A DNA stretch of 34,378 bases from positions 1-34,378 of the forward strand of contig UZAE01012663.1 in the NCBI GenBank assembly GCA_900617975.1. The letters are read 5' to 3'. The stretch is from Rodentolepis nana (Eukaryota > Platyhelminthes > Cestoda > Cyclophyllidea > Hymenolepididae). Position numbers and translations under genes: made by a program. This document shows positions 2,812 to 34,359 of this stretch, in pieces; position 1 is the first letter of the stretch; each line of letters starts with the position of its first letter. The notes below the pieces were generated by a model. The model saw only the letters and a list, made by a program, of their open reading frames with translations. It ran no database searches and was not told where the DNA came from.

Positions 2812-4114
2812 TTGGGTTGGCAACTAAGTCATTGCTCTTTTTGTTGACACATTCACTCTATACTTTCTTTTGTTTTGTTAACGTGGCCAGAGCATCTTAC
2901 CTATATTTTTTTCTTACTGTATGGGCTTCTAGGTTAATTAGTAAAAAATTTTTTTTGTTTAGTTCTTTAGTTTTGTTTTTATCCCAATTTAAAAATGAAT
3001 GAACAGGACGTGCACTTCCGACACATTTTATTGTATTACTTCCGAAAAGGCAAGAAAGCATCGCAAGCACAAAAGAAGTTATGTGGCGTATATGGAGATG
3101 AAGCCTTAAAAGAAAGGCAGTGTCAAAATTGGTTTGGAAGATTTCTTTCCGGTGATTTTTCACTGAAGAATTCACAACGATCTGGCCGCCCAGTCGAAGT
3201 GGGTGAAACACATATCAAGGCCATTATCGATTCAAATCGTCACAGCACAACACGAGATGATATTGCAGAGAAGCTCAATGTGTCGCATACATGCATTGAA
3301 AAAATTAAAAATCCTCAGCTATGTCAAGAAACTTGATTTATGGATCCCTCACCAGCAGTTAAAGGAAATTCATTTGACGCAACGGATTAGCATCTGTGAT
3401 TCGGCGCTACTGAAACGCAATGAGAATGATCCATTTCTGAAGAACCTAGTTACTGGCGACGAAAAGTGGATAGTATATAACGATGTTACTCGCAAGAGAT
3501 CATGGGTGAAGCAAGATCAACCAGCCCAAACAGTATGAAAAGCAGAGATTCAGCAAAAAAGGATTATGCTGTCAGTCTGGTGGGATCACAAAGGAATTTT
3601 GTATTTTGAACTCATGCCGCAGAACCAAACAATAAATTTAAATGTGTATGTTGAAGAACTCGAAAAACTGGAGGATGCAATTGAAGATAAGTGGCCGGCA
3701 TTATCAAATCGGCGGAAGGGTGTTGTTTTCCATCATGATAACGCAAGGCCCCTCCCCCCCACACATCTTTGGTTACTCGGCAAAAATTATTGGAACTGGG
3801 TTGGGATATTTTGTCACACCCACCATATAGCCCTGACCTTGCGCCTTCGGATTACCATTTGTTTCGTTCCATGCAAAACTCTATAAATGGTAAAATTTTT
3901 AACAACGCAGATGATGTCGGATCACACCTAATTCAGTTTTTTAATAGCAAAGACCAGACATTTTACGAACGAGGAATTTTACTCTGCCAGAAGGATGGAA
4001 AAAGGTTATCGACAAAAACGGTTAATATCTAATTACATAAAGTTATATTTTTAAACAAAAATCCCGAATTTGCCTTCTTATTTGAAATCGGCAATGACAT
4101 AGTTGCCGACCTAA
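2812..4114 (+). mobile_element. Mariner transposon, copy A, full length
   Basis: This is a 1303-bp element with near-perfect terminal inverted repeats. It starts ttgggttggcaactaagtc and ends with the reverse complement of ttaggtcggcaac. TA dinucleotides at 2810-2811 and 4115-4116 are the expected target duplication. The length and single transposase frame fit the mariner/Tc1 superfamily. The transposase motif TGDEKW and the PYSPDLAPSDYHLF signature place it in mariner proper. The terminal sequence resembles the cecropia-like subfamily, a placement I hold only loosely. The transposase is dead (separate entry), so movement would need enzyme from another copy. Confidence 0.95.
2995..4032 (+). 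pseudogene. Mariner transposase pseudogene (copy A)
   Basis: Transposase cuts out and reinserts the element at TA sites using a DD34D catalytic triad. The start at 2995 (MNEQDVHF) opens a helix-turn-helix DNA-binding half (FRKGKKASQAQKK and RQCQNWFGRF, then SGRPVEV and a second HTH around HSTTRDDIAEKLNVSH). The reading is broken four times. There is a one-base loss in the A-run near 3300, a TGA at 3536-3538 where copy C has a sense codon, an 8-base C-rich insertion near 3752-3760 just after the second catalytic Asp (HHDNARP), and a lost T near 3980 that scrambles the C-terminus. The first Asp (TGDEKW) and third Asp (PSDYHLF) are still readable. Total coding length of about 345 codons is normal for mariner. 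Confidence 0.92.
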
Positions 4115-4269
4115 TATATTTCTTGAGTGTGTTAGCAACACCAGACTCAACAACAAAGGGTATAATACAGCACATGAAAAATACTAACAATTTATTTTTA
4201 TTTAGGTATAAATGAATATCAAATAATTAAAATTATACACAAGCCCCACATTTTTACTCAAAAAGCTAA

Positions 4270-7900: not shown

Positions 7901-10309
7901 CATCTATAATGATTACACCTTTAATTTGAGCAGCAGTTCATGAAGAATGCTTTTTTAATTTTATTCTATTTCATTCATTTTATTGTGAAGGTTATGATTA
8001 GCTGTCTCTACCATCTACTTCCATGTCTCATGCCAAATCTTTTTGATCACTTTATCAACAATTTGCATTTCCTTCTGGTAGGAGGGCTGAACATATCAGC
8101 TTTAAGAAGTCAGTATAGTTCTGTGGATATGGAAAAGACATCTAATTGGCAATCTCATCATACAGTATACAGTCTCATATATGGAAAGTGAACAGTAATT
8201 TCTAAAGCTTGAAAATAGAGACACATACACAAGTAGTTTATTGACTATCATAACGTTTTACAAACTGAAGGTAAATAAATATAATGAATTGACAGTCATA
8301 TGAATAAGTTAATTTACATCATTCATAAATAGTAGTGTATAATGGAAACAAAGTTTTAGATTAAAACAGAACAATTTCGTTCCCGGTTGTTCAAACTCAC
8401 ACTTGATAGATTAGTCAATCAACGTGATGTTGTAGACGTCGACAACGCCTTGAACTTGGCTTCTCTAATTATGCATTTTGTGTCCAACACGTTTCTATTT
8501 ATTGTTGCATTACTGAAATATATTATGGTTTAATATATAATTTTAAAATAACTCAAAAGTCTTAGGGAGCAGAAGATATATTATGAATACGTAAGCGCTC
8601 GTGTATTATCCTGCGTGTGAAAGCAAGTAAAATGTAATACATTCTTTTAACTGCTGAACATTGTTCGATAAAAGCTTCGTATCTGTGTATTTGAGAACTT
8701 TGTGAGTTCCTCTGCAAAATGGCTAAATCTATAAATTCTTTTTAAAATGCGGTGAATGCAAAACACAGAACATCCTTCAGGAAATCGTTAACGAATCAAA
8801 GCACTGGAAAGATATGAAGAGTTTTAAATACTACTTATACTATTTTTAAATACCAATTGTACAGAACACGTTCCATTTCCTGGCCGATTTGGGGCTTTGA
8901 TTGTGCAAAATTGAAGGAATGAAATGGAAATAATTTCATAAAATCAACCTGCACTATTTACTTCAATAACTCTCTCAAGGGATGTTACGATTTTGAATGA
9001 TAACATAAACTGAGCAGAAATAAAATGGAAAGATATCGTTAGAATAAAATGTATTCAAATATTTTACTAAATTAATAAAGCGTGATCAAACTTGATTTGT
9101 TACCTAAAGGACATGCATTCATCGTTCGAAATAACAAAAAAAATCGATAAATCTATAATTCAGTTTCCACAACAACATGAATGAAATATCGATGAAATTA
9201 AATTTAGAATCGAAGTTCAGATAATTAATTTTAAAAAGACTAATGCGTGAATTTATATCTCATGCACTCTTGGGCCAGGTAAACTCATAATGCAAAAATA
9301 TTCCATAAAGCAGAGCAAGTTAGTAATTCAGCCATAGAGAAGATTGTTCAATATTTAATATAATTAATATTTTTCAATATTCATATTACCAAAGAAGTTA
9401 AGAATGTTGAGCATAATTAACGCATAAGAGTTTGCTTCTAACTACAAACCACCACGATCTGTATCTGTTTCAAATTCCCCAGAGGTACAGTACTCATCTT
9501 ACCATTTTTCCCCACCTTTGTGTCAGTTGCATTTAAATATGTGAATATCGTCGCTATTATTCCTCAAATTTTTGTGGCTTTAATGATGCTGGAAATCAAC
9601 TAAAGAGCAAGTGATAATGATCGCTAATCCGACAATTCGAAACAAATAAATTACTATTTCATGTACGGCTTGTAGAATTATACTGCTTGTTTCATTATTT
9701 AATATAGCTGAGAGAAATGACAAGAAAATTATGCTTCAGGACAAATTATAATTTTGCTAATTTAACTTGGAATTTTATAGAAAGCGAAGATATAATTTAG
9801 CATTTAGAGAGGTGAGTGAAATAATATATCAATTATACCAAACAGTCTCTAAAGTTAAGCCTTTTTAAGCTAACTCTCAATTTTTACAATAAATTTCTTA
9901 TGTTGCAAATCAATGAGCCAAACACCTTATTGGTAACATAAAATGGTAGAAATTAAAGGAGCGTAATGTGTGAAATACAGTCAATTAAAGCAGTACATAA
10001 TTGTTGATAGCAAAAACTAATTTTATTGTTAATAAACATAATTACATATTATGATTACTTCAGATATTGAAGTTTATAGGCATATTTAGAAGTGAGTCAT
10101 GTTAATGGAAATGAAACATATCATGTCACATAGATAGACCTAAATCGTTTGGTGATAATAGTTTTTAGGGCGCAAAAACAATTAAATCTTGAAGTTATGA
10201 ACTCTTATATAATGATTATTTGAATACGATTTCATGAATATATCTGTTTAAGTTCCAGAAAAATGCAGCATAAGCAAACATCCAAGCAGATAAAAAGCGT
10301 TATTATTAT
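7901..10309. other. Long AT-rich stretch, nothing recognised
   Basis: About 2.4 kb has no supported gene, transposon or tRNA-like structure. Open frames here (for example 7940-8191, 83 codons) are short and hydrophobic, and resemble chance frames in AT-rich DNA. Confidence 0.4.
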
Positions 10310-11860: not shown

Positions 11861-11896
11861 TTCATTCTCTTATCTCAGCTGTTTATCTCGCCATGC

Positions 11897-12522
11897 CAAG
11901 TTCAAGGCCTTGTCGATGTGTACAACTAAGCGTTAATAGATTTAATCAAAATCTTATTTCATCAACCTATTTAATATTGAAATTCGACTTCATATGCGCA
12001 GAAATAAGTTGTGAATGGACTAACATGCTACTTAGCCACTTAAGTAGTTTCCATTAATTCACGGAGAGTAACACATAAAATAACACTCCTTCACTGCTTG
12101 TAATGGCATATAATTAGAACTATATACTGGTGATGAAACATCCAAGTTCGTCATTAACATTTATAAGATATGAATCATAAGGATTTCCTTTTGAAGTTCA
12201 AGTTAACACTTTAAAGAGCTAAATGCGGTTGTTTGGATTCAAGCATAGTATGGTTTTTCATATTTGTCATTTTTTTCGGCACGCTGCCTTAATACATTTG
12301 GCTACAAATATCGACAATATAAAAGTGCCGTTCGATATCGGCTTGAATATATGCATGTTTAGATCAATTAATCCCATGCAATAGACCAATTATTTAATTT
12401 ACCATTTTAATGGATAGTTGAAGTGAGCATATCTTAATATATTTCTTACTGATCATAGATTTTCAGGGTTCTCTATATATTCGTAGTCAATTTTCACATT
12501 AATATTATTGCCATATATTTTC
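11897..12522 (+). repeat. Family P copy, mostly identical to 2164-2732
   Basis: Bases 11907-11953 are only loosely similar to 2117-2163. From 11954 to 12522 I find no difference from 2164-2732. The identity ends at an N. The abrupt step from a diverged to an identical match within one repeat copy points to gene conversion or an assembly join, not to old repeat homology. Confidence 0.85.
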
Positions 12523-12523
12523 N
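12523..12523. other. Single N: sequence gap or forced join
   Basis: The only ambiguous base in the window replaces 372 bases present in the matching region (2733-3104). It therefore removes the end of the flank plus the terminal repeat and the first 293 bases of mariner B. Confidence 0.98.
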
Positions 12524-13451
12524 CTTAAAAGAAAGGCAGTGTCAAAATTGGTTTGGAAGATTTCTTTCCGGTGATTTTTCACTGAAGAATTCACAACGAT
12601 CTGGCCGCCCAGTCGAAGTGGGTGAAACACATATCAAGGCCATTATCGATTCAAATCGTCACAGCACAACACGAGATGATATTGCAGAGAAGCTCAATGT
12701 GTCGCATACATGCATTGAAAAAATTAAAAATCCTCAGCTATGTCAAGAAACTTGATTTATGGATCCCTCACCAGCAGTTAAAGGAAATTCATTTGACGCA
12801 ACGGATTAGCATCTGTGATTCGGCGCTACTGAAACGCAATGAGAATGATCCATTTCTGAAGAACCTAGTTACTGGCGACGAAAAGTGGATAGTATATAAC
12901 GATGTTACTCGCAAGAGATCATGGGTGAAGCAAGATCAACCAGCCCAAACAGTATGAAAAGCAGAGATTCAGCAAAAAAGGATTATGCTGTCAGTCTGGT
13001 GGGATCACAAAGGAATTTTGTATTTTGAACTCATGCCGCAGAACCAAACAATAAATTTAAATGTGTATGTTGAAGAACTCGAAAAACTGGAGGATGCAAT
13101 TGAAGATAAGTGGCCGGCATTATCAAATCGGCGGAAGGGTGTTGTTTTCCATCATGATAACGCAAGGCCCCTCCCCCCCACACATCTTTGGTTACTCGGC
13201 AAAAATTATTGGAACTGGGTTGGGATATTTTGTCACACCCACCATATAGCCCTGACCTTGCGCCTTCGGATTACCATTTGTTTCGTTCCATGCAAAACTC
13301 TATAAATGGTAAAATTTTTAACAACGCAGATGATGTCGGATCACACCTAATTCAGTTTATTAATAGCAAAGACCAGACATTTTACGAACGAGGAATTTTA
13401 CTCTGCCAGAAGGATGGAAAAAGGTTATCGACAAAAACGGTTAATATCTAA
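12524..13451 (+). pseudogene. Mariner transposase pseudogene (copy B)
   Basis: This carries the transposase from the middle of the DNA-binding half onward (RQCQNWFGRF). It has every lesion of copy A: the A-run frameshift, the TGA at the end of DQPAQTV, the C-rich insertion after HHDNARP and the lost T before the C-terminus. TGDEKW and PYSPDLAPSDYHLF are still visible in separate frames. Start codon and promoter are absent because of the gap at 12523. Sharing all lesions with copy A means the two derive from one dead sequence, or are the same sequence assembled twice. Confidence 0.9.
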
Positions 13452-13533
13452 TTACATAAAGTTATATTTTTAAACAAAAATCCCGAATTTGCCTTCTTAT
13501 TTGAAATCGGCAATGACATAGTTGCCAACCTAG
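12524..13533 (+). mobile_element. Mariner transposon, copy B, missing its 5' part
   Basis: This is equivalent to 3105-4114 of copy A, with one internal substitution seen (13359) and two differences in the last ten bases. The 3' terminal inverted repeat ends in ccaacctag, followed by TA at 13534-13535. The right flank is family P and unrelated to the right flank of copy A, although the left flank is identical to that of copy A. Confidence 0.93.
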
Positions 13534-13535
13534 TA

Positions 13536-13728
13536 AATGAAATATGGACAAATATTAATTTCCAATCGAGGGGCAAGTAATCAGTCTTGAAGGCTAAATT
13601 TGGTTTTCCTTGGAAAATTGATAGAAAGATAAATATATTCTCTGGACTGCAGTCATTAGTTTATTTGGCTGCCAATTGTGACAACATATTTTTGCCTATA
13701 TTGCACCTATATGTTTTATTTTTGACAT
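13536..13728 (+). repeat. Family P fragment between mariner B and a LINE head
   Basis: The reverse complement aligns with 25850-26036, including a tttgtccatatttcatt block, a gattacttg block and the stem-loop (13649-13672, gcagtc/ggctgc). Both copies continue from the stem-loop through ttttgaca into the 5' end of a LINE. Mariner B and the mariner at window position 1 sit at the same TA of this repeat. Confidence 0.75.
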
Positions 13729-17773: not shown

Positions 17774-18028
17774 TATTTATTTATTTATTAATTTGGAATG
17801 GCAGACCATTTGTTAATTATCGTTAGCCTTTAGCTGACTTCGCACTTTGTAGTTTGTAGAAACATCAAAGTGGAAAAAGTGGAGAGTGGGGAAAAGTAGA
17901 GTGATTCAAAGAAGTTAAGTAGACAGGCAGACACAAAGGCAGAGAAAGGGAAATATGATTACGGTGAAAGCGGAAAACCATGACATACAGTGAGGTAATA
18001 ATAGTTAGAAGTCAGGATTCTACTAATA
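17774..18028 (-). mobile_element. 5'-truncated LINE-derived short element
   Basis: The reverse complement parallels 34098-34345 throughout: a gacttctaa start, cctcactgtatgtca, a pyrimidine-rich middle, gtgcgaagtcagctaaag, gtctgcc and a TAAA-type tail. It lacks the ribozyme head. It sits inside family P sequence whose right part (tacaaaatatt onward) is the same segment that mariner C interrupts elsewhere. Confidence 0.8.
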
Positions 18029-21010: not shown

Positions 21011-21139
21011 AATCATGGCTAGATTAGATTTAGCAACAGCTCTAATTATAATGAAGAAAAGATATCAATGGAAAGCATGGGAAAATGTCTGGTTATCAGT
21101 GATATTCATCAACAGAATTATACTTTGCAGGACAAATTA

Positions 21140-22446
21140 TTAGGTTGGCAACAAAGTCATTGTCGATTTCAAATAAGAAGGCAAATTTGGAATTTTTTTT
21201 TTAAAAATATAACTTTATTCAATTAGATATTGGCCGTTCTTGTCGATGACCTTTTTCCATCCTTCTGGCAGAGTAAAAATTCCCCGTTCGTAAAATGTCT
21301 GGTCTTTGCTATTAAAAAACTGAATTAGGTGTGATCCGACATCATTCGCGTTGTTAAACATTTTACCATTTAAAGAGTTTTGCATGGAACAAAACAAATG
21401 GTAATCCGAAGGCGCAAGGTCAGGGCTATATGGTGGGTGTGACAAAATATCCCAACCCAGTTCCAATAATTTTTGCCGAGTAACCAAAGATGTGTGGGGT
21501 GGGGGGGGGGCCTTGCCTTATCATGATGGAAAACAACACCCTTCCGCCGATTTGATAATGCCGGCCACTTATCTTCAATTGCATCCTCCAGTTTTTCGAG
21601 TTCTTCAACATGCACATTTGAATTTATCGTTTGGTTCTGCGGCATGAGTTCAAAATACAAAATTCCTTTGTGATCCCACCAGACTGACAGCATAATCTTT
21701 TTTTGCTGAATCTCTGCTTTTGATACTGTTTGGGCTGGTTGATCTTGCTTCACCCATGATCTCTTGCGAGTCACATTGTTATAAACTATCCACTTTTCGT
21801 CGCCAGTAACTAGGTTCTTCAGAAATGGATCACCCTCATTGCGTTTCAGTAGCGGCGAATCACAGATGCTAATCCGTTGCGTCAAATGAATTTCCTTTAA
21901 CTGCTGGTGAGGGATCCATAAATCAAGTTTCTTGACATAGCTGAGGATTTTTAATTTTTTCAATGCATGTATGCGACACATTGAGCTTCTCTGCAATATC
22001 ATCTCGTGTTGTGCTGTGACGATTTGAATCGATAATGGCCTTGATATGGGTTTCATCCACTTCGACTGGGCGGCCAGATCGTTGTGAATTTTTCAGTGAA
22101 AAATCACCGGAACGAAATCTTTCAAACCAACTTCGACACTGCCTTTCTTTTAAGGCTTCATCTCCATATACGGCACATAACTGCTTTTGTGCTTGCGATG
22201 CGTTCTTGCCTTTTCGGAAGTAATACAATAAAATGTGTCGGAAGTGCACGTCCTGTTCTTTCATTTTTAAATTGGGATAAAAACTAAACTAAGGAGCCAA
22301 ACAAAAACATTTTTTACTAATTAACCTAGAAGTCCATACAGTAAGAAAAAAATATAGGTTAGTTGCTCTGGCTACGTTAACAAAACAAAAGAAAGTATAG
22401 AGTGAATCCGTCAACAAAAACGACAATGACTTAGTTGTCAACCCAA
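21140..22446 (-). mobile_element. Mariner transposon, copy C, full length
   Basis: This is a 1307-bp element. The left end reads ttaggttggcaac (the 3' inverted repeat) and the right end is the reverse complement of ttgggttgacaac. The target duplication is TA at 21138-21139 and 22447-22448. It is inserted in a copy of the family P segment seen at 4370 and 19140: the flanks rejoin to give the aaaatatt ... ctgcaaatt landmark. It is the least damaged of the three copies. Confidence 0.95.
21215..22264 (-). pseudogene. Mariner transposase pseudogene (copy C)
   Basis: Starts at 22264 (MKEQDVHFRH). The DNA-binding half is RQCRSWFERF ... SGRPVEVDETH ... AEKLNVSH. A one-base loss in an A-run near 21955 shifts the frame. 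The long middle frame then reads YVKKLDLWIPH, TGDEKWIVYN (first Asp), KIMLSVWWDHKG and VVFHHDKARP (second Asp). A second shift is caused by an 11-base C-rich insertion (G-run on the plus strand at 21502-21511). The last frame gives PYSPDLAPSDYHLF (third Asp) and an intact C-terminus FTLPEGWKKVIDKNGQYLIE. Only these two lesions are seen, and both sites are also broken in copies A and B. The Asn normally following the second Asp is Lys here. Confidence 0.92.
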
Positions 22447-22448
22447 TA

Positions 22449-22945: not shown

Positions 22946-23219
22946 TCCTCAAGATTATTATTATTATTTTAAATGTCAGGCTTTATGATATTTGTCACTA
23001 GCCCCTTAGCTGACTTCGGATTCGATAAGAGAAGGGTACATATATGTAGTTAATCAATAACAGGTTATTTTTTCTACTGGCTTCCCTGTAACCCTTTGGT
23101 TTCTTCGTCGTCTTTAGGACTGGACAAAGAAACAGATGGGTCTTCCTCATTTCCTCCTGCAGGTTACAAAAGGGGTATGTTTGGTGAGTGCATACGCCTT
23201 GTCTGTGAAGAGAGCAAAA

Positions 23220-23660
23220 TTGTTATCCGGTTCTTAGCAAGTGCGTCAGCAAAATCTTTGCGTTTAATGCCACAGTGCTCAGAAATCTATTGAAGAACCC
23301 CCGTTTTCTTTGTTTACTTTCAGCAGCTGAAAGAGTTTTTTCATTGGTATATCTCAACTGTTGTGTAAGGCTCTCTGTTTCCGTTAGAGTTTTTTACTGA
23401 CTGTGAGCCAAAAGTATTTCCGCTTCGGCGAATTTCGCGTTCAGGCAACATAATTGGCTTAGTACTATCCTAATGGTCTTCATTTACCCTTTGAAAGCGG
23501 ATCTATTGTGTCCCGCTGCTGAGTAGAAATAGAAGATTTCAGGATAGACACATCCACCAACGGTTGCATAGTGTTCTACGTGTGACTCATCAGTGAAGAC
23601 TTGGAGCCATTGATCTGTAGTATATTAGGCATTGATTGCGAAATTAGTTACCTTAATGGT
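23220..23660 (-). pseudogene. LINE RNase H fragment (copy 1)
   Basis: Minus-strand reading LQVFTDES near 23600 is the start of RNase H (first catalytic Asp; TDES instead of the usual TDGS). The region from 23400 to 23560 parallels the E and D blocks seen intact at 29640-29790. Near 23270 the last block can be traced (ELAD equivalent degraded, with a tail matching KGNELADTLAK only partly). Frames change several times. It is clearly non-functional. Confidence 0.7.
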
Positions 23661-23699
23661 TTTTATCTAAAGTAGTATCCTTGTACCTTAAAAGCGCGT

Positions 23700-24450
23700 T
23701 TATGCTGTGACGGGAAAAGAAAATATTTGAAATGCAGTTTTTGCGGTGTTGATAATCATTCCGTTGTTGTTGCTCCAGCTGGCAATTTGTTTAAGTGCAT
23801 AATTAAGGTCACCTTCCGTCCACTCCTGAGCGTTTTTCATAAAGGCGAAATGCCATAGCACAAGAACATCTGCATTAATTAAGCGCTTTATGTCCGTTGG
23901 TGTCTGTACCGATTCGGCTATGATATTGATGAAGACATTGAAAAGAGTGCAGCTTGGTATAGCTCTCTGTAGAAAGCCCTTTTGTAATAGATTGAATTTT
24001 GATAGAGCATTTCCGTATCTGACTTCACACGATCTTTGTTCAATGAATGCTTTTACCCCGTTTATCATGTTATGCTTTATACTAATCTTTGCCAAGTGAC
24101 CGCTTGTTGGTTATTCGATTTTTTGCGGCCTTAAACCGGCTTGTTCGATGCTTAGAATATATTTCATTTTAAGAAACCAGATTAGCCTCCTGTTAACCAT
24201 TCTTTCCATAAGTTAAGCTAACACGCTGGTAAGGGAGATAGGCTTATATTTGTCAAGGTTCCAGGATCTTTGCACTTTTAGTACTGGTAGTAATATGGTA
24301 ACTTTCCATTGGTTAAGTACGAGAGCGTCAGTACGGTTTACTTGGCTATTCGTCCTATTCTAATTAAAAAATTCCGGATGAATACCGTCTTCGCTTGGAG
24401 ACATTTTGCAATTTTTATCACAGCATTAAGTTAGCAGGTTCTTAATGGTT
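23700..24450 (-). pseudogene. LINE reverse transcriptase fragment (copy 1)
   Basis: The 131-codon frame at 23700-24095 covers the palm: SCEVRYGNALSKFNLLQ, then FLQRAIPSCTLFNVFIN where the other long copy reads GLPQGAVTSCTLFNVFIND, and LINADVLVLWH where the catalytic YADD should be. Both Asp residues of the YADD box are therefore not in place. Upstream (24100-24250) the finger region corresponding to LMERMVNRRLNWFLE and EQAGFRPQKS is still recognisable but shifted. The C-terminal side continues into ALKQIASWSNNNGMIINTAKT, the usual region after YADD. Confidence 0.88.
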
Positions 24451-24499
24451 CATTCAGTACACTATTTGTTGTTGTTTTGTCTTACATAATTTCACCAAA

Positions 24500-25000
24500 C
24501 TGTCTTACTTGTATCTTTAAAGCTCTCGAAGATTTTCTGACAAAAAGGTTTTCTTTTGCCTGTGGGAATAGAACCTCGCAAAGCAGTTGGCTATTTCGGA
24601 GTCGGTGTTGAGCAATTTGTTCTTAAACGTATTGGTTCTTTCTTGGGTCTTTCTCTGTTGTTTTGGAGGCTACCCAGAAATTCGAAACTGCGTTAGCTAT
24701 CACTTTGATAGTTGATATTTGAGATGAATTTGTTGAAGAAAGTTCGTTTAGCTTGTAAGATGGCTTGCCTTAGGACAGCAGACTGCCGTCTCCAGGCTTG
24801 TACGTCTTCCGTACTTCAAGTCTGATCAGCAGTGTTGTGAAGGGAGTCCCGCTTTATTTTCAGTTTCTCATAGTGTTTAGACCATAACACTCGATAGTGT
24901 TAAGAAATGGCACGGGGAATAGTTTTTTTGTTCATCCCATTATAATATTAATGATATTTTAGCAAATTTTGTCGAGGTGTTGGTTAAAGTCGAGGTGACT
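24500..25000 (-). pseudogene. LINE endonuclease-RT linker (copy 1)
   Basis: It aligns base by base with 32040-32400 and 26953-27175. The best frame in the latter reads KHYRAFWSVHLEERKGKRDALCNIADQTGR and AVLRQAILQAKR, the helical linker between endonuclease and reverse transcriptase. In this copy the frame is broken in several places and only the nucleotide match is convincing. Confidence 0.75.
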
Positions 25001-25049
25001 TGTTCGAAGTTCATTCTCTAGCAGGTTTGTGAATCTACATCAGTCGGCC

Positions 25050-25760
25050 TTCATGAAGTTCAATGATAACTTAGTTGGCATGTTCGTTGTCATGCTTTAG
25101 CTGTTGATGGTAATACTATCAATGACTAGTTTGTGACCAGTATCAGGATTGTCATTTATTTTCTCTGCGTATGCTCACTGATGGCGCTTGAAACCAGGAG
25201 TAAGTCAGTTGCTGTTCTGGTTCCATAGCAATGCAAATATGTAGTACGATTTTTATTGCTATAAATAAGTTCTAGAAGGTGGCTGTTAAGCATGTTTTCG
25301 ATTACAAAACAAACAATGTTAATATTTATATAGCCCCATCTGGTGGAATAGGCGGTGAAGTCTCCTAATACCACAGATTTGTGTGAGCAGCTCAGAAAAT
25401 CAAAGTTGAGACTATTCTGGGGTCGATTTCAACCTGCCTATATCTTAAAGTGGTTTTGAAATTTCTAAAAATCTAATGTAATTTTTTCGTATATGCCTTA
25501 CATCGAGCCCATGCTCTTGATTATATCGTAATGTGATGAGAGGCCTTCTTTTACTCAAGTCACAATTCCACCTGTAGAAGATGTAAAGTGTAACTTGGCC
25601 TTTGATAGTGTATGAGTTTGTCTTCCGTATGATATGCTTCCATGATTGTGAATATGTCTATTTCATAGATATGTAGGAAGGATCGATAGAAGGTGAGATT
25701 AACCTGACAAGAGCGGTTTCTCTTAGTGCTTGGTTTCAAACTTATCATAATTAATTGGAA
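25050..25760 (-). pseudogene. LINE endonuclease (copy 1)
   Basis: Pieces in order on the minus strand: MISLKPSTKRNRSCQ (start near 25749), DIDIFTIMEA (metal-binding Glu present), LVLGDF-like MVLGDFTAYSTRWGY (the GDFN box, 25374), and TYLHCYGTRTATDLLLVSS. The final SGHKP box reads TGHKLVI near 25140, so the catalytic His survives. The first-strand block LQWNAEGI is deleted and frameshifts separate the pieces, so it is inactive. Confidence 0.85.
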
Positions 25761-25846
25761 CCAAATATCCGGTAATTGGTTTTTTTGCCGTATGAATATA
25801 AGCTGTCCGGTGTATACCACGAGGATGTAGGTCTATAGTGTTCTCC

Positions 25847-26952
25847 TGTCAAAAATACTTTAAAAAGTGCAAAATATACAAAATTATGTTGTCATAATTG
25901 GCAGCCAAATAAACAAATGGCTGCACGCCAGAGAATATAATGGTTGAAATTGATTTGTAGAGAAAACCGCATTTAGTCAACAAAACGGATTACTTGATCC
26001 TCGATTAGAAGTTGTTATTTGTCCATATTTCATTTAGGATGATGCGCACACTGTAAAACGAAAGGCTCAGCGCCAGTGTATAGTTTTAATTATTTGCCAT
26101 TGAAGGCAGTGAGGGCAAGATATTAATGTATAACTTTTTGAAAAATTAATGAATTCTACTTAAGTATCTAAGTAGCAATTTTACACACACATGTATTCTC
26201 TTCATACAAGGGGTTATCTAATATATAACTTAATAAATCTTGTTTAAACGACACTTTCTTAATTTTAATTATGTGCGATTTTCCTAAATATCGGGAACGT
26301 GTCTTTTCTTTAAACTAAACAATAATAATTAAGTATTACTTTTGAAGAAAATGTAAATAGATAAAGATTCTAAAGATTCTATTAAAAAAAGAAAGTTTTT
26401 GTCATCGGAGGTGTGAAATATTACTTCTTTAACTCATAATGTGAATATCTACACATTGTTTCGAACTCTTTTCCTATTCACTTTGATCCTAATTTCACAG
26501 TTTTGTTAAACTTGTAATTCCCTAACATAAACACATATAGATGATATTATTTTTCAACCGAAAACTCAACAAATGAATGACGATATTCTGTAAGCATATC
26601 GCAAAAATGTGAGCCTTTTGTAAATCAGATAAAAAGGAAAGATAGGAATCACTTCTTCACTATGCCTCTTTAAAACAGAGCACTTCTCCAAGGTTAAGGT
26701 TCGAAAAAAAATCGATTAAATTATTTAAATATGGGTTGAAGGCAAGAATATTTAGCAGCGAATAATAATCAAAAATTGTTACTCACTTCAACTCAAAATT
26801 ATTTGTCAGCGCGAAAGCAATAATTCGGAGTTTATTTCAAATCTCCATATGACCCATGTATCATCATCATCATCATATCGCATACACGCACTTTCGAAAT
26901 CTGACTTTAAAATATCTTTACACTTTAAACTATGACTAGACGAAAAATGCAT
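25847..26952 (-). repeat. Family P, copy flanking two LINE insertions
   Basis: The stem-loop at 25901-25924 (gcagcc/ggctgc, 12-nt loop) is followed by the gattacttg and tttgtccatatttcat blocks, and then the sequence that parallels 57-1637. It is broken at 26952 by a LINE fragment. A small matching piece follows that fragment at 27890-27940. Confidence 0.75.
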
Positions 26953-27889
26953 CGTTTAGCTTGCAAGATGGCTTGCCTTAGGACAGCTGACTGCTGACTC
27001 CAGGCTTGTACGTCTTTTATTCTTCCAGTCTGATCAGCAATGTTGCAAAGAGCGTCTCGCTTTCCTTTTCGCTCCTCAAGGTGTACAGACCAAAACGCTC
27101 GATAATGTTTAGTCTTGCCACGGGAATAGTTTTCTTTGCACGTCTGAGCATAATATTCGTGATATCGTTGCAAATTTGTCAGGATGTTGGTTGAGTTTGA
27201 GGAGACTTGTTTGAGGTTCCATTGTAGGGAAGATATGTAGCTGGATCCTCATTTCTGCAAATACGTTCTAGAGGGTTGTTGTTAAGCATGTCTTCAATTC
27301 CCAATTCAGCTATGTGTGTTATTGTATAGCTCCACCTAGTGGAATAGGCGTTGAAGTCTACTAATACTAAAGGTGTGTGCAAGATGCTCCGAAGATCAAA
27401 ATTGTGTCTATTCTGGGGTGGAATATAGGCTGCTTTTATCTTGAAGTGGTTTTGACATTTCCATGCAACTTATCTGATTATTTCGTATATGCCTTGCGCC
27501 AAACCCATGCTCTTGATTAGATCGTAATATGATGCTAGGTCTTCTTTTACTCCAGTCAGAATTCCACTTGCAATTTTCCGGTATTTAGGTAGAAGGTATA
27601 GAAGGCAACCTGTCAATCGGAAGTATTTGAGTTTGTTACCCAAATGGTTTGCTTCCATGATTGTGAATATGTATATATTATAGGTATGTATGAATTTCTG
27701 GATTTGGATATTCATTTCCTATGATATCCCTCCAGCATTCCACGAAGGACTTCTAGATATTGTGAGGAGGTTGATGTCTCTTATTGCTTGGTTTCAAGCT
27801 AACCATAGTAAATTAAAGTCAAATTTAGAATAAAAGTTTTTTTGGGGTATAAATTTAAGCTGTCCGGTGTATACCACGTGAACGTAGAT
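26953..27889 (-). mobile_element. LINE 5' half fragment
   Basis: It runs on the minus strand from a partial leader (27889-27850, with the cacgtggtatacaccgg piece that corresponds to L3, P3 and the 3' strand of P1 in the ribozyme) through the endonuclease to the middle of the linker, where it stops at 26953. Family P sequence lies on both sides. Its leader belongs to the older subtype shared with the copy ending at 25846. Confidence 0.88.
26955..27799 (-). pseudogene. LINE endonuclease and linker fragment
   Basis: Pieces: NIYIFTIMEANHLGNKLKYF and LLPKYRKIASGILTGVKE (27715-27470), LVLVDFNAYSTRWSY and NEDPATYLPYNGT (27382-27179), then the linker KHYRAFWSVHLEE and AVLRQAILQAKR (27173-26925). GDFN is VDFN here, and the SGHKP region appears deleted between the last two pieces. 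Frameshifts separate them. Confidence 0.85.
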
Positions 27890-28976: not shown

Positions 28977-29149
28977 TTATTTATTTCAAACGGCAGGCTT
29001 TATGATATTCATCATTAGCTCTTAATCTTTGACTTCAGCTTCCACCAAGATTGCGGGAGGAAGATTTATAGCAGTTAATAAATAGCAATTTATTAGCTGT
29101 CTTCTTGCTTCCCAGTATCTTTGGCTTTCCGTCGTTACCTTTAGAGCTG

Positions 29150-29340
29150 GACACGGAAACAGGTGGGTCTTCTCCATTTCCTCATGTAGGTTACATAGAG
29201 GGTATGTGAATTGAGTCTATACACCCAATCTGTGAAGGCGTTTTGCCCAGCAATCGTGTCCGGTACGTAGTCTTAACTCAGCAACGGCTCTGTCCGATAC
29301 GTAGTCTAAACTCAGCAACGGCTTCGATTCTCGTAGTCGG
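29150..29340 (-). pseudogene. LINE C-terminal finger region (copy 2)
   Basis: The minus-strand readings VAEFRLR and then VAELRLRTGHDC show a partial duplication (a block of about 45 bases repeated, 29237-29325). They are followed by a stop and YPLCNLHEEMEKTHLFPC, the CX2CX9HX3C finger with the first Cys replaced by Tyr. A frameshift separates this from the RNase H frame. Confidence 0.8.
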
Positions 29341-30540
29341 CTATGTCGGAGAGTGCCACTGTCCACTGTTTCTCTTTTGTTGGAGCTTTGAGTTCGTTGA
29401 ACCTTGAGGTCTGGAATTCTCTTTGATTAAGGTCTTCATTGTGTGGAAAGACATCGGCCGGTCTTGTCGCTTCTTAGCAAGTGTGTCAGCAAGCTCATTG
29501 CCTTTAATGCCACAGTGACCATGAATCCATTGTAGGACCACTGTTTTCTTTTTCTCTACCAGCAGCTGATAGAGTTTTCTACATTCTTTTATCTCAGCTG
29601 TTTTGGGTGTCTCTTTGTTTCAAATTGCGTTTATTACTGACTGTAAGTCCGAAAGTATCACCGCTTTAGAGAATTTTGTATTCAGACAACATATTTGGCA
29701 TAGTGCTATCTTAATGGCTTCTATTTCTCCTTCGAAAATGAATCTATTGTGTCCCGTTTGTGCGTAGAAAGGTAAGAGTTCAGAATAGGCACCTGCACCA
29801 ACGTTTGCTTCGTTTTCTATGTATGACCCATCAGTGAAGACTTAGAGCCCTTGATCTCCAGGATAGTTGACATTGATTGTCTCAAGGGCCAGAGAGCGCA
29901 TTTGCTCTGGAGAAGTGTTTGATTTCCTGAAGAAGTCGAACAGTTGGGTGCAACACACTACATCAGTGTCTGCAAATGGGTCCATGAGGAGAGAGAGGCT
30001 TTTTGGTTTGCCATCGATTTGCAATTCTTTCTTCAGTTCTATGGATTTCTGTATTAGACCAGATTGCGTTTTCAGATGTCTTGGACTATTCTCATAGGTG
30101 CTGAAGAACTTGTCCATGGGAATGCGCAGTAGCTTCTTATACAGGATCAAGGCCTTCTCTTTGATAAGGGAACCTTTTGTGGTGCTTCCTGTAACTAGGA
30201 GCATTGCATCAATGGGTGTTGATTGTATCCCTCCAGTAATTAGTCGGAATGCTTGTTTGTGTGCCTTCTCGAGGGGTTTGAGAGTCACCTCTGTGGCTGT
30301 AATGAGTGGCTCACAGCAATACAGCTTTATTGGCTGAATAAACATCTTGTAAGTGGTGTTGAGAGTTAAGCGTGCACAGTTCCATTCGCTACCAGTAAGA
30401 CGCTTCAGGATATTCAGTCTATTGGAGACGCGTTCTGCTATTTTAGCAATGTGACTTTTCCACGTTAGCTTTATGTCAAACGTCATTCCGAGATAAGTGA
30501 ACTCATTGGTTTTTTCTAGGGTAATATCCTTTTACCTTAA
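29341..30540 (-). pseudogene. LINE connection and RNase H domain (copy 2)
   Basis: One frame is open from about 30540 to 29341 except for TAA at 29842-29844 and TGA at 29620-29622. Both look like single C-to-T changes: copy 1 has CAA at the first site, and the second context fits CGA. The upstream part reads EFTYLGMTFDIKLTWKSHI, NRLNILKRLTGSEW, TYKMFIQPIKLYCCEPLITA and KAHKQAFRLITGG, the usual region between palm and RNase H. RNase H follows with FTDGSYIENEANVGAGAYS (first Asp), GEIEAIKIALCQ (Glu), AVILSDLQSVINA (Asp) and LQWIHGHCGIKGNELADTLAKK (last Asp). All four catalytic acids are present. It is the best preserved protein segment of this family in the window. Confidence 0.92.
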
Positions 30541-30626
30541 GAGCGGGTTTATGCTCTGATGGGCGAAGGAAAATGTTTGGAATGCAGTTTTGCGGTGTTA
30601 ATTTCCATTCCATTGTTGTCACACCA

Positions 30627-31040
30627 GTTTGCTAGTAGTTTGAGTGCACTATTAAGAGCACCAAGTTTGCTAGTAATTTAAGTGCACAATTTAGGGCACT
30701 TTCCAAGCGTTTTTCTTAGGGGTGGAATACCATAGAACAAGATCTAAATAAGTGCACTATTAAGAGCACTTTCTGTCCTCTCCTTAGCGATTTTTCCAAT
30801 TTAGGGCACTTTCTGTCCTCTCCTGAGCGTTTTTCTCAGGGGCGGAATACCATAGTACCAGATCATCTGCATAAAGCATGGGGGGGGAATACCATAGTAC
30901 GAGATCATCTGCGTAAAGTAAGCACGGGCACTTTCTGTCCTCTCTTGAGCGTTTTTCTTAGGGGCGGCAGATCATCTGCGTAAAGTAAGCACTTGGTGCC
31001 CGTGAAAAACCATCTGCCTAAAGTAAGCACTTGATGCCCG
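30627..31040. repeat. Stuttered block within LINE reverse transcriptase
   Basis: The same short stretch of coding sequence is traversed about four times with small differences: agtgcactattaagagca at 30643 and 30751, ctttctgtcctctc at 30770, 30808 and 30931, ggaataccatag at 30725, 30845 and 30887, and agatcatctgc at 30859, 30902 and 30967. The equivalent region in copy 1 (23783-23930) is a single pass of roughly 150 bp. The effect is to destroy the YADD region of this copy. Confidence 0.9.
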
Positions 31041-31044
31041 TGAC

Positions 31045-31800
31045 TGTCATTGATGAAGACATTGAAAAGAGTGCAGCTTGTGACAGCTCCCTGTGGAAGG
31101 CCTGTTTGCAAAAGATTGGATTTTGATAGAGCATTTCCGTATCTGACTTCACACGATCTTTGTCCAATGAATGCTTTTATTTAGTTAAGCATGTTATGCT
31201 TGATACCAATCTTTGCCGATTTTAGAATTAGCTTCTCTTTCCATACTAAGTCATATGCTGATTTGAAATCGTCGAAAACAGTCGTATGGGTATTTCTAGC
31301 ACCAAGGTCATCTTTGATGTGTTGGGAGAAAGTGGATATTTGTTGGTTCGTTGATTTTTGCGGCCTAAAACCAGCTTGTTCATTCCTAAGAATATTGTTG
31401 GTCTCAAGGAACCAGTTCAGCCTCCTGTTAACCATTCTTTCCATAAGTTTAGCCAGTGTGCCTCCTGTTAACCATTCTTTCCATAAATTTAGCCAGCACG
31501 CTTGTGAGGAAGACAGGCCTATAGTTGTCAAAGTTGCTAGGGTATTTGCCTTATAGTTGTCAAAGTTGTTTTTTTTATTTCTGGTATTACTATGGCAACT
31601 TTCTATTTGCAAGGTTCGAGACTGGTCTCCCAGATTTTGTTGTAAAGTGTCAGCATGGTTTCCTTGGCTTTTGGTCCCATTCTAATTAGAAATTCTGGAC
31701 TTGGCTTTTGGTCCCATTCTAATTAGAAATTCCGGATGGATTCTTTTGGACCCATTCTAATTAGAAATTCTGGATGAATACCTCCCATTCTAATTAGAAA
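31045..31800 (-). pseudogene. LINE reverse transcriptase (copy 2)
   Basis: A frame from 31612 to about 31045 is interrupted by one TAA at 31181-31183. It reads LAKLMERMVNRRLNWFLETNNIL, EQAGFRPQKSTNQQI, TVFDDFKSAYDLVW (first catalytic Asp block, usually VDFKSAYD) and GIKHNMLN. After the stop come IKAFIGQRSCEVRYGNALSK and GLPQGAVTSCTLFNVFIND (the PQG box). LLYADDL is found at about 30930, but separated by inserted duplicate sequence. A 41-bp near-duplicate at 31420-31500 repeats the MERMVNRR block. Upstream (31640-31810) the finger region is repeated four times in short pieces. Confidence 0.9.
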
Positions 31801-32039
31801 TTCTGAATGAATACCGTCTTCGCCCGGAATTTTTGCACTTAAGCTGTTTTATCGCAGCATTGAGTTCGTGTTTGCACTTGAGCTGTTTTATCGCAGCATT
31901 TGGTTTGCAAATGTTCAGGATTACATTATTTGGTGTTGCTATGTTTTCCTTAATTTCGCCAAACTGATTATTTGGTGTCGCGTCTTCCTTAATTTCACCC
32001 AACTATCTTACTTTGATGGTTGATATTTGAGATGAAGTT

Positions 32040-33504
32040 GTCGAAGGAAGTCCGTTTAGTGTTTGCCTTAGGACAGCTGATTGTCGTCTCCAGGCTTGTA
32101 CGTAGGACAGCTGATTTTGTTTAGCTTGTAAGATGGCTTGCCTTAGGACAGCTGATTGTCGTCTCCAGGCTTGTACGTCTTCCGTTCTTCCAGTCTGATC
32201 AGCAGTTTTGCGAAGGGCGTCCCTTTCTTTTCAGTTCCTCAAGGTGTTTAGATCAAAACACACAATAGTGTTTTGTCTTGCCTCGGGGATTAGTTTTCTT
32301 TGCACATCTGATCATAATATTTGAGATATCCGTGCAAAGTTTGTCAGGATGTTGGTTGAAGTTGAGGGAACTTGTGTGAAGTTCTTTGTCTAAAAAGGTT
32401 AGTGAATCTAGACCAGTCAGCCTTCTTGAAGTTCCATGAGAGCTTAGTTGGAACTTTCCTTGCCATGCTTTTGCTGCCGATGGTAATACTAGCAATGAGT
32501 GGTTAGTCACCAGAACCAGGATCGTCAATTATTTTGCGGCGTGTGTGCTCATTGATTTTGCTTAAAGCCAAGAGTAAATCAGGAGTTGTTCTGGTTCCAT
32601 TGTAGTGCAAATATGTGGCCGGATCCTCATTGCTGTCAATAAGTTCCAGAGTGTTGCTGTTTAGCATGTCTTCAATTTCCTTTCCAAAGAGGGTTGCTGT
32701 TTAGCATGTCTTTAATTTCCTTTCCAGCTATGGTGGTAAATCAGGAGTTGTTCTGGTTCCATTGTAGTGCAAATATGGGCCGGACTCTCATTGCTATAAA
32801 TAAGTTCCAGAGGGTTGCTATTTACCATGTCTTCAATTCATTGCTATAAATAAGTTCCAGAATGTTGCTTTTTAGCATGATGTTTAGCATGTCTTCAATT
32901 TCCTTTCCAGCTATGTGGCTATGTTTGAAACCTTGTAGCCCCATCTGGTGGAATAGGAGCTGAAGTCTCCTAATACTATAGTTTTGTTAGAGTTGTTCAG
33001 AAAGTCAAAGTTTGGATAATTCTGGCGTGGAATATAGACTGCATATATTTTGAAGTGGTTTTGACATTTCCAACCATTTAATCTGATTATTTAAAATATG
33101 TCTTATGTCGAAGCCATACTTTTGATTAGATCGTAGTGTGAGGTGAGGCCATCTTTTACTCCAGTTAGAATTCCACTTGCAACTTGCCGGTATTTAGGTA
33201 GAAAGAACAGGGTGTAACCTGTGTATTGGTAGTACTTCAGTTTGTCATCCAAAAGATTTGCTTCCATAATTGTGAAAATGTCTACATCATAGGTTTAGGG
33301 ATTTTCTGTACTTGGATCTTTTTGTCCGGCGACATTCCTGATTCCATAATTGTGAAAATGTCTACATCATAGGTTTGTAGCCTTTTCTGTATGGTTCTTC
33401 TTGTTCGGTGACATTCCTCCAGCATTCCACTGGAGGATCTGAAGACGTTGTGATTCGGCCTGACGAGGGCGATTTTTCTTATAGCCTTTTTTAAAGCTAA
33501 TCAT
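32040..33504 (-). pseudogene. LINE endonuclease and linker (copy 2)
   Basis: The ATG is at 33504-33502, 103 bases from the element 5' end. Recognisable boxes in order: DVDIFTIMEANLLDDKLKYY (Glu present), LPKYRQVASGILTGVKDG, TIVLGDFSSYSTRWGY, NEDPATYLHYNGTRTTPDLLL and IIDDPGSGD followed by a stop, where the family reads SGHKP, so the catalytic His is lost. The linker with LEEL-type helices follows to about 32040. Duplicated blocks at 33255-33420 (the FTIMEAN-coding stretch twice), 32640-32910 and 32055-32180 interrupt it. Confidence 0.85.
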
Positions 33505-33535
33505 AATAAATCGAAGTCAAAAACGAATGCCGAGT

Positions 33536-33607
33536 GATAGACTTTTTGACGTAAGAAAATACGTTGTCCAGGGTGCACCACGTGGAGGTAAGTCTATCGC
33601 GCACCCC
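33536..33607 (-). ncRNA. HDV-like self-cleaving ribozyme at LINE 5' end
   Basis: Read on the minus strand from 33607. P1 is GGGGTGC (33607-33601) with GCACCCT (33576-33570), 7 bp, and the first pair is the G.U wobble typical of this fold. P2 is GATAGACTT (33598-33590) with AAGTCTATC (33544-33536), 9 bp. P3 is ACC (33589-33587) with GGT (33579-33577), closing loop TCCACGT. P1.1 is CC (33585-33584) with GG (33569-33568). P4 is ACGTA (33564-33560) with TACGT (33553-33549). J4/2 contains a C at 33548 followed by A residues, the position of the catalytic cytosine. Cleavage would free the element 5' end exactly at 33607. Compared with the copy at 34026, P1 pair 7 is C-G instead of U-A, a compensatory change. 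Activity is inferred, not shown. Confidence 0.85.
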
Positions 33608-34011: not shown

Positions 34012-34025
34012 ATATCGATCCATCC
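34012..34025. repeat. Left target-site duplication of short element
   Basis: atatcgatccatcc here recurs at 34346-34359 directly after the TAAA-type tail. The first two bases could belong to the tail, so the duplication is 12-14 bp. It fixes the element 5' boundary at 34026. Confidence 0.93.
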
Positions 34026-34097
34026 GGGGTGTGCGATAGACTTACCTCCACGTGGTACACCCTAGGCAACGTATATTCATACGGCAAAAAGTCTATT
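34026..34097 (+). ncRNA. HDV-like self-cleaving ribozyme at 5' end of short element
   Basis: All five helices of the nested double pseudoknot can be drawn. P1: 34026-34032 GGGGTGT with 34057-34063 ACACCCT, 7 bp, G.U first. P2: 34036-34043 ATAGACTT with 34089-34096 AAGTCTAT, plus a G.U at 34035/34097. P3: 34044-34046 ACC with 34054-34056 GGT, 7-nt loop TCCACGT. P1.1: CC 34048-34049 with GG 34065-34066. P4: 34070-34074 CGTAT with 34079-34083 ATACG, 4-nt loop. J4/2: GCAAA with the candidate catalytic C at 34085. The predicted cut is immediately before 34026, exactly where the target-site duplication ends. The fold family is known from R2, L1Tc, RTE and other non-LTR elements. Its presence here is read from sequence, and activity is inference. 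Confidence 0.9.
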
Positions 34098-34345
34098 AAC
34101 TGGCAGTTGACTTCTAATCTTCAAACTACCATCACCTCACTGTATGTCATATTCGACTACTTCCATAGTACTCACCTCACCTTTGTTCTACCTTTGTGTT
34201 TGTCTCTTACATCTTTGAAACATTCTTCCCTCCCCCCCACCCTCTCGACTTTTTTCAAATTGATGTTCCTTCCCCTCTGTGAAGCCTGAAGTCAACTAAA
34301 GAGCTAATGGTAACCATCAAGACGCCTGCCGTTTGATATAAATAA
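34026..34345 (+). mobile_element. Complete LINE-derived short non-autonomous element
   Basis: This is a 320-bp insertion with a target-site duplication on both sides. The head of about 80 bases (34026-34105) is homologous to the 5' end of LINE copy 2. The middle (34106-34280) is pyrimidine-rich on this strand and has no counterpart in the LINE copies here. The tail of about 64 bases (34282-34345: gaagcctgaagtc, agagctaatg, cctgccgtttga, then AAAT units) is homologous to the LINE 3' end. It has no protein. By analogy with ingi and RIME in trypanosomes, it would use the LINE protein in trans, recognised through the shared tail. The intact duplication and intact ribozyme suggest it inserted recently. 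Confidence 0.9.
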
Positions 34346-34359
34346 ATATCGATCCATCC
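34346..34359. repeat. Right target-site duplication of short element
   Basis: Copy of 34012-34025. It follows the AAAT tail. Confidence 0.93.

What the first reader, a model, noticed from the sequence alone, without database searches (positions are those of the whole stretch)
34026..34097. Complete HDV-like ribozyme at the 5' end of a short retroposon, cut site coinciding with the insertion boundary
Seen directly: P1 (7 bp with leading G.U), P2 (8-9 bp), P3 (3 bp, 7-nt loop with CC), P1.1 (CC/GG), P4 (5 bp) and a C in J4/2 all fall in the order and spacing required by the HDV-like fold within 72 nt. The target-site duplication independently ends at 34025, so the ribozyme's first G is the element's first base. 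Known: HDV-like ribozymes process the 5' ends of R2, L1Tc, RTE and related non-LTR transcripts out of read-through RNA. Inferred: this element and its LINE use the same trick. I do not know of a description for this family.
Basis: partly seen in the sequence, partly recalled or inferred. Interest (0 to 1): 0.9.

Follow-up and report, generated by a model that had tools for sequence, protein, structure and literature searches.

The report
Ribozyme-headed SINE swarm in a tapeworm
A tapeworm genome holds thousands of copies of a short RNA motif found at the front of two kinds of jumping DNA, and this motif is predicted to cut its own transcript exactly at the insertion edge, which would likely let the elements spread from other genes' transcripts without a promoter of their own.

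Summary
At 34026-34097 every helix of the HDV-like fold is present, with the J4/2 C at 34085. In the window only this head and its LINE counterpart at 33607(-) pass a strict descriptor; 134 random sequences gave 1 hit. RF02682 scores this copy 37.9 bits, below its cut-off of 44, but 37 of 61 scored genomic matches exceed it. The 320-bp element is flanked by a 14-bp duplication ending at 34025. In 30 of 36 usable copies a duplication of 8+ nt is found, abutting G1 in 23.

The element is a non-autonomous partner of a LINE: it shares the LINE's 5' head (86%) and 3' end (75%), with an unmatched middle. The LINE carries the same head just before its start codon. The host is a tapeworm; its assembly has 4,250 exact ribozyme cores.

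Self-cleavage is untested. Compensatory changes are inconclusive in structure-blind copies. The Drosophila R2 SIDE has the same build and self-cleaves, so this is a new family of a known kind; the host, the dispersed insertion and the copy number stand out.

The parts
34012..34025 (+). 5' copy of the 14-bp target-site duplication
   Evidence: Exact direct repeat ATATCGATCCATCC, 334 nt apart
34026..34345 (+). Non-autonomous retroposon (SINE/SIDE), 320 bp, 5' ribozyme, ATAA-type tail
   Evidence: Bounded by the duplication; 39 further places matched over nearly the full length at 90-93% among the 41 scored matches; tails
34026..34097 (+). HDV-like ribozyme: P1 34026-34032/34057-34063, P2 34035-34043/34089-34097, P3 34044-34046/34054-34056, L3 34047-34053, P4 34070-34074/34079-34083, predicted catalytic C 34085
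   Evidence: Sequence; RF02682 37.9 bits and RF00094 29.7 bits, both below cut-off; descriptor hit
34120..34262 (+). Pyrimidine-rich middle, no match inside the LINE copies compared; no Pol III A/B box by consensus in the element on either strand
   Evidence: BLASTN against two window LINEs and 13 loci; box scan
34263..34345 (+). LINE-like 3' end and tail
   Evidence: 75% to 29065-28977 and 68% to 23041-22964 of the two window LINEs
34346..34359 (+). 3' copy of the target-site duplication
33536..33607 (-). HDV-like ribozyme at the 5' end of the partner LINE
   Evidence: 86% to the element head over 80 nt; descriptor hit; RF00094 28.6 and RF02682 27.8 bits, both below cut-off
28977..33607 (-). 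Partner LINE, decayed copy with internal duplications; start codon at 33504-33502, RT remnant, shared 3' end
   Evidence: Sequence; RT PF00078 35.3 bits on 31184-31681; endonuclease and RNase H found in sister copies
22964..25846 (-). Second decayed LINE copy with a decayed ribozyme head (25768-25846)
   Evidence: R1 47.6 bits; RT fragment 16.6 bits, below the Pfam cut-off; 3' end match
26950..27886 (-). 5' fragment of a third LINE copy with a decayed head
   Evidence: BLASTN self-comparison; sequence

Best explanation
The 320-bp element is a non-autonomous retroposon whose first 72 bases are predicted to fold into an HDV-like self-cleaving ribozyme that likely frees the element's RNA from longer host transcripts by cutting just before its first G (34025/34026). 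Shown: pairing letters for every helix of the fold, the exact boundary, a head and a 3' end shared with a LINE in the same genome, no Pol III promoter boxes by consensus, and thousands of copies of the ribozyme core. Inferred: the element is copied as part of read-through (Pol II) transcripts; the ribozyme makes the 5' end; the LINE's protein recognises the shared 3' end, reverse-transcribes the RNA at a nicked target and rebuilds a complete element, ribozyme included. The LINE would process its own RNA the same way, with its start codon about 105 nt from the cut end. Because the ribozyme lies wholly inside the element, every full-length insertion would carry its own 5'-end-making device, whatever the flanking DNA.
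For: Fold: the 26 pairs of the expected structure form in 95.3% of 2,335 cells over 90 distinct heads found by DNA similarity alone. RF02682: 37 of 61 scored genomic matches above the cut-off; of the 14 control genomes 8 have sub-threshold matches and none one above it. Descriptor specificity.

Boundary: 30 of 36 usable copies have duplications of 8+ nt, 23 abutting G1 and 7 with 1, 2 or 4 bases between, against 1.7% for mismatched flanks. In 29 LINE heads no upstream position is fixed, while 27 of 29 begin with G1 and positions 2-6 are invariant.

Core retained: of 24 body-selected copies outside the first set, 23 were examined and all 23 carry the head directly upstream; of the 20 of them aligned in detail, the J4/2 C is present in 20 and the four helices (P1 6+, P2 7+, P3 3, P4 4+ pairs) in 15.

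LINE partnership: head 86%, tail 75%. Of 107 heads with enough downstream sequence, 97 lead into this element's body and 10 into the LINE.

Copy number: 4,250 exact cores and 2,723 exact 33-nt 5' ends in 107 Mb, backwards-pattern controls 0.

Precedent: the R2 SIDE of D. willistoni (same architecture) and NARTco self-cleave in vitro.
Against: No cleavage data. The window copy is below both Rfam cut-offs, no genomic match reaches the RF00094 cut-off (0 of 71 matches), and this copy carries A at the first P1.1 position. In structure-blind copies only 3 of 114 pair-breaking changes are restored by the partner, against 1.75 expected (128 of 500 shuffles reach it). In the set mostly picked by Rfam models, 19 of 293 are restored against 10.8 (24 of 500), mostly in P4, but that choice favours pairing; P2 shows 4 against 6.0. 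With partners slid by 1-3 columns, 10-14 pairs have double changes against 14, and 18-30 cells against 20. The head is not more conserved than the rest of the element among 38 recent copies (96.4% against 95.6% for the middle and 97.4% for the 3' end).
Confidence: 0.85

Rival explanations
1. The head is kept as a DNA-level internal promoter (as Pr77 of L1Tc is reported to be, in addition to a ribozyme), and the ribozyme-like fold is secondary or no longer used.
For: Pr77 at the same place in L1Tc is reported to work as an internal promoter and as an HDV-like ribozyme (passages). The head is no more conserved than the rest of the element.
Against: A promoter needs neither the full fold nor the J4/2 C, yet the pairs form in 95.3% of cells of 90 structure-blind heads and the C is in 20 of 20 body-selected copies. 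The two roles can coexist.
Confidence: 0.1
2. The ribozyme was active in the ancestral LINE, but most present copies, this one included, are dead passengers that no longer cut.
For: The window copy is below both Rfam cut-offs and has a P1.1 change; both longer window LINE copies are decayed; P1, P2 or P4 is weakened in 5 of 20 body-selected copies, one of them cut by a contig end.
Against: Thousands of exact cores and 5' ends and duplications still exact over 8+ nt in 30 of 36 copies suggest recent spread from intact sources.
Confidence: 0.3
3. Chance resemblance, or an ordinary SINE head without ribozyme function.
For: Unremarkable nested folding energy; covariation inconclusive in young copies.
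Against: Descriptor rate of 1 per 134 random sequences against two heads in the window, both at element starts; 37 of 61 scored matches above an Rfam cut-off; G1 at the insertion boundary.
Confidence: 0.03

Closest known systems
R2Dwi_SIDE, Drosophila willistoni (PMC3414825; part of the abstract and passages seen)
   Same: Short element (529 bp) with an HDV-like ribozyme at the 5' end, a 197-bp middle without match to the LINE, and the LINE's 3' end; identities to the LINE of 64% and 81% at the two ends; self-cleaves in vitro. The same paper's R2/R1 hybrid SIDEs sit in 14-bp duplications and are thought to use another LINE's machinery.
   Different: The R2 SIDE sits in the 28S gene and would be cut out of the 28S co-transcript; this one is dispersed, with duplications of 8-16 nt, an ATAA tail, a partner LINE with Exo_endo_phos endonuclease and RNase H, thousands of ribozyme cores, and a tapeworm host.
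L1Tc/NARTc, L1Tco/NARTco and SIDER elements of trypanosomatids (PMC4035085; passages seen)
   Same: LINE and short partner share a 5' HDV-like ribozyme of about 77 nt; several tested active. One ORF with endonuclease, RT and RNase H is how I recall L1Tc; no call shows it.
   Different: Unicellular hosts; the short partners NARTc and RIME are described as truncated LINE versions; Pr77 also acts as a promoter. No Pr77 sequence was compared here.
Rfam RF02682 (HDV-F-prausnitzii) and RF00094 (HDV ribozyme)
   Same: Same helices and core letters, including ACCUC-ACGUGGU and AGGCAACG.
   Different: By their titles a bacterial and a viral ribozyme; the window copy is below both gathering scores.
Metazoan non-LTR retrozymes (PMC7229834, start of abstract in a listing; PMC7761336, passages)
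   Same: Short non-autonomous retroelements with a self-cleaving ribozyme, regarded as possible SINEs.
   Different: Hammerhead, not HDV-like, and expressed as small circular RNAs.

Membership tests
HDV-like ribozymes | Double pseudoknot with P1 (7 bp), P2, P3 (3 bp), P1.1 and P4 in order | tested here: met
   P1.1 reduced to one in-register pair in the window copy
HDV-like ribozymes | Catalytic C in J4/2 | tested here: met
   C34085; C in 20 of 20 body-selected copies and 172 of 180 heads of the union set
HDV-like ribozymes | Covariation supporting the helices | tested here: inconclusive
   Structure-blind set 3 against 1.75 expected; model-selected set 19 against 10.8, mainly P4; P2 not above chance
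HDV-like ribozymes | Self-cleavage 5' of G1 | not testable with these tools
   Needs an in vitro assay
Rfam RF02682 (HDV-F-prausnitzii) | Score at or above the gathering score of 44 bits | tested here: not met
   Window copy 37.9 bits; 37 of 61 scored matches elsewhere in the genome do reach it
Rfam RF00094 (HDV ribozyme) | Score at or above the gathering score of 50 bits | tested here: not met
   Window copy 29.7 bits; 0 of 71 genomic matches
Short non-autonomous partner of a LINE (SINE/SIDE) | LINE-like 3' end; target-site duplication; many copies | tested here: met
Short non-autonomous partner of a LINE (SINE/SIDE) | No transposition protein encoded | tested here: met
   Longest of the three forward open stretches is 87 codons with its first Met at codon 80; no Pfam family above cut-off, best E 0.12
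Classical SINE | Pol III promoter from a small RNA gene | tested here: not met
   No A or B box by consensus on either strand; no Rfam family at its cut-off in the window
R2 SIDE | Insertion in the 28S gene | tested here: not met
   The 36 insertions compared have different flanks, after removal of two duplicates
L1Tc/ingi (Pr77) elements | Pr77 hallmark sequence; ingi-clade RT | not tested
   No reference sequences were fetched; no RT tree was built

The most novel reading that the evidence does not exclude
A class of SINE that has replaced the Pol III promoter by self-cutting: each full-length insertion turns any transcript running through it into a new source RNA, so the tapeworm's transcription units are seeded with thousands of built-in RNA cut sites, driving both the spread of the family and the breakage of host pre-mRNAs.
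Probability: 0.4. Interest if true: 0.75.

Novelty: new member of a known kind. Interest (0 to 1): 0.5.

Why it matters
If active, this would be a very large natural set of self-cleaving ribozymes in one animal genome (4,250 exact cores in 107 Mb; no comparison with other animals was made). It sits in a tapeworm group whose genomes have been described as dominated, among typed repeats, by LTR and DNA transposons (PMC12471100, passages; for H. microstoma 1% from LINEs within 23% transposable elements, PMC7653826, passage) and which lack a canonical piRNA pathway (PMC6880638, passages). It offers a dispersed system outside rDNA for testing how a promoterless short element gets transcribed and keeps an exact 5' end, and whether ribozymes inside introns damage host transcripts.

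Tried and rejected
Rejected: chance fold; a Pol III SINE; an element made only by internal deletion of the LINE, since the middle has no match in the two window LINEs, and the four of 13 loci that did match do so outside the LINE stretch, at other copies of the short element as I read their positions. The idea that other short families share the head was dropped: all 107 heads with enough downstream sequence lead into this body or the LINE (31 of the 138 rows were left out as short, from three tandem-array loci, or near an end).

Led nowhere or weak: pair counts on the first 36 heads were uninformative. My model R1 was built from heads that include the window's two, so its high scores for them are no test. 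The third head of the window, at 25768-25846, is decayed. A stretch further down one LINE (L162) had no open frame of 100 aa. LINE clade was not settled: the names given to two spider relatives (X-element, BS) are database labels; that RNase H without an upstream ORF suggests the I/ingi/Vingi group is recall only. Literature: no paper with Hymenolepis and ribozyme or with Rodentolepis and retrotransposon in the held library; most subscription papers are not held, so absence is weak.

Full report
What is there. The element runs from 34026 to 34345 and is flanked by the 14-bp duplication ATATCGATCCATCC at 34012-34025 and 34346-34359. Its first 72 bases fit the HDV-like plan: P1 34026-34032/34057-34063 with a leading G.U, P2 34035-34043/34089-34097, P3 34044-34046/34054-34056, the L3 loop UCCACGU, P4 34070-34074/34079-34083, and a C at 34085 in J4/2. 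The first base of the P1.1 strand is A in this copy where most relatives have G.

More than chance. RF02682 aligns end to end at 37.9 bits (E 2.9e-5 for 979 nt), RF00094 at 29.7; both are below the curated cut-offs, and a scan of the whole window at the cut-offs lists nothing. A strict descriptor of the fold, run on both strands, finds in the window only this head and the LINE head at 33607/33605(-); 134 random sequences of the same length and dinucleotide make-up, one strand each, gave one hit. In the whole assembly 37 of 61 scored RF02682 matches (25,212 first-look candidates) exceed the cut-off; 8 of 14 control genomes, those named being prokaryotes and so smaller, have weaker matches and none one above the cut-off. 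RF00094 gives 71 matches, none above its cut-off, with sub-threshold matches in 4 of 14 controls. Neither Rfam model scores P2; its 8 inner pairs arise in 0.16% of local shuffles.

The insertion boundary. Of 40 copies (39 places and the window), two were duplicate insertions and two lacked 3' flank; of the other 36, 30 have an exact duplication of at least 8 nt, abutting G1 in 23, one base away in 4, two in 2, four in 1; mismatched flanks give 1.7%. These copies were found by similarity to the full element, so that all 36 begin with G is partly selection; the duplications are independent of it. In 29 LINE heads (29 of the 40 places, one head per locus) no upstream position is fixed while positions 1-9 nearly are, so the LINE begins at the same G.

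Ribozyme and body go together. Of the 40 best body matches, 24 were not in the first set; 23 of these were examined (one begins too near a contig end) and all 23 have the head directly upstream. In the 20 fetched for this, the J4/2 C is present in 20 and P1 (6+), P2 (7+), P3 (3) and P4 (4+) in 15, one of the five failures being cut by a contig end. Conversely, 97 of 107 heads lead into this body and 10 into the LINE.

Covariation, told in full. On a set mostly picked by Rfam models and aligned to my own model, the tool counts 14 pairs with changes on both sides against 7.4 in shuffles (0 of 500), but structures slid by 1-3 columns reach 10-14 pairs and 18-30 cells against 14 and 20, while their paired fraction falls from 89.9% to 34-46%. 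On 113 cleaned rows of it (23 dropped, 2 identical), 24 of 286 pair-breaking changes are restored by the partner against 10.1 in shuffles (0 of 500); realigned without structure, 19 of 293 against 10.8 (24 of 500), P4 8 against 1.55 (0 of 500), P2 4 against 6.0. In 90 heads found by DNA similarity alone it is 3 of 114 against 1.75 (128 of 500). The family is too young, or the sampling too structure-aware, for covariation to be decisive. P4 double changes such as L144 (U-A to C-G) and L140 (G-C to A-U) are single cases.

The partner LINE. The inverted copy 33607-28977 has the same head (86% over 80 nt) and the same 3' end (75% over 89 columns). In the 14 sister copies read (14 of 29 loci), an ATG lies at nt 103-105, the only one listed between nt 81 and 130; an endonuclease follows (PF14529, PF03372; two copies tested), and RNase H (PF00075) in one of them; an RT remnant is in the window copy (PF00078). 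Many copies are internally deleted. The middle of the short element (34120-34262) has no match inside these LINEs, and no Pol III box was found by consensus. Its longest forward open stretch is 87 codons with no Met before codon 80 and no Pfam match above cut-off.

Host. The LINE's closest proteins are from the tapeworms Rodentolepis nana (26 of 56 rows, 23 of them 58-91% identical over the part aligned) and Hymenolepis microstoma (56-72%), then spiders (34-48%). The assembly's COX1 (flatworm code) is 89% to an unnamed protein and 86% to Pseudanoplocephala crawfordi; the further best-scoring named rows are cestodes. So the genome is a tapeworm, probably a hymenolepidid (that P. crawfordi and Rodentolepis belong there is recall), of unnamed species.

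Scale. Exact matches: ribozyme core 4,250, 33-nt 5' end 2,723, a 22-nt body word 465, a 23-nt LINE word 188, backwards controls 0. Some cores lie in tandem arrays, so cores are not insertions.

Known and new. The R2 SIDE of Drosophila willistoni has the same three-part build, and its ribozyme self-cleaves (PMC3414825, passages); trypanosomatid LINEs and their short partners share active HDV-like ribozymes (PMC4035085, passages); R2 elements, planarian ones among them, carry them too (PMC3774820, passages). So the kind is known. New, as far as searches of the held library show, are the family, the cestode host, the dispersed insertion outside rDNA and the number of copies. In the R2 work cleavage at the junction goes with variable added bases at the 5' junction; the 7 of 30 duplications with 1-4 bases between them and G1 agree with that model (inference).

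Mechanism. Shown: pairing letters of the fold, boundary, shared ends, copy number. Inferred: release from read-through transcripts by self-cleavage, capture by the LINE protein through the 3' end, target-primed reverse transcription, and regeneration of the ribozyme at each full-length insertion.

Noticed in passing
L126:497-1101, L127:559-806, also L125, L079: Tandem arrays of a 39-nt unit made of the ribozyme core (P3, L3, P1 3' strand, P1.1, P4): about 15 units in L126 and 6 in L127, a minisatellite grown from the ribozyme; several model matches in a row in L125 and L079.
   Followed up: partly
window 2103-4121, 11892-13536, 21134-22448: Three copies of a mariner-like transposon region (PF01359 tested only in 21373-22092); 3105-4113 and 12524-13532 are 99.8% identical, which suggests a recent local duplication or an assembly artefact.
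   Followed up: partly
window 28977-33607: The LINE copy contains many short internal direct duplications, as if built by repeated template switching; another copy (L050) joins endonuclease directly to RNase H parts.
   Followed up: no
window 17785-18024 (-) with flank to about 18140; 9264-9649: Old copies of the short element: one seems to have an inverted ribozyme fragment upstream, the other a decayed head separated from the body by roughly 120 nt (read by eye).
   Followed up: partly
L074 open frame against P0005, P0027, P0037: After tapeworms, the LINE's nearest named proteins are from spiders and a psyllid, which fits horizontal transfer between arthropods and tapeworms or patchy survival; no tree was built.
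   Followed up: no
L040/L042, L041/L043: Pairs of contigs carry the same insertion with the same flanks: allelic or redundant contigs in the assembly.
   Followed up: no
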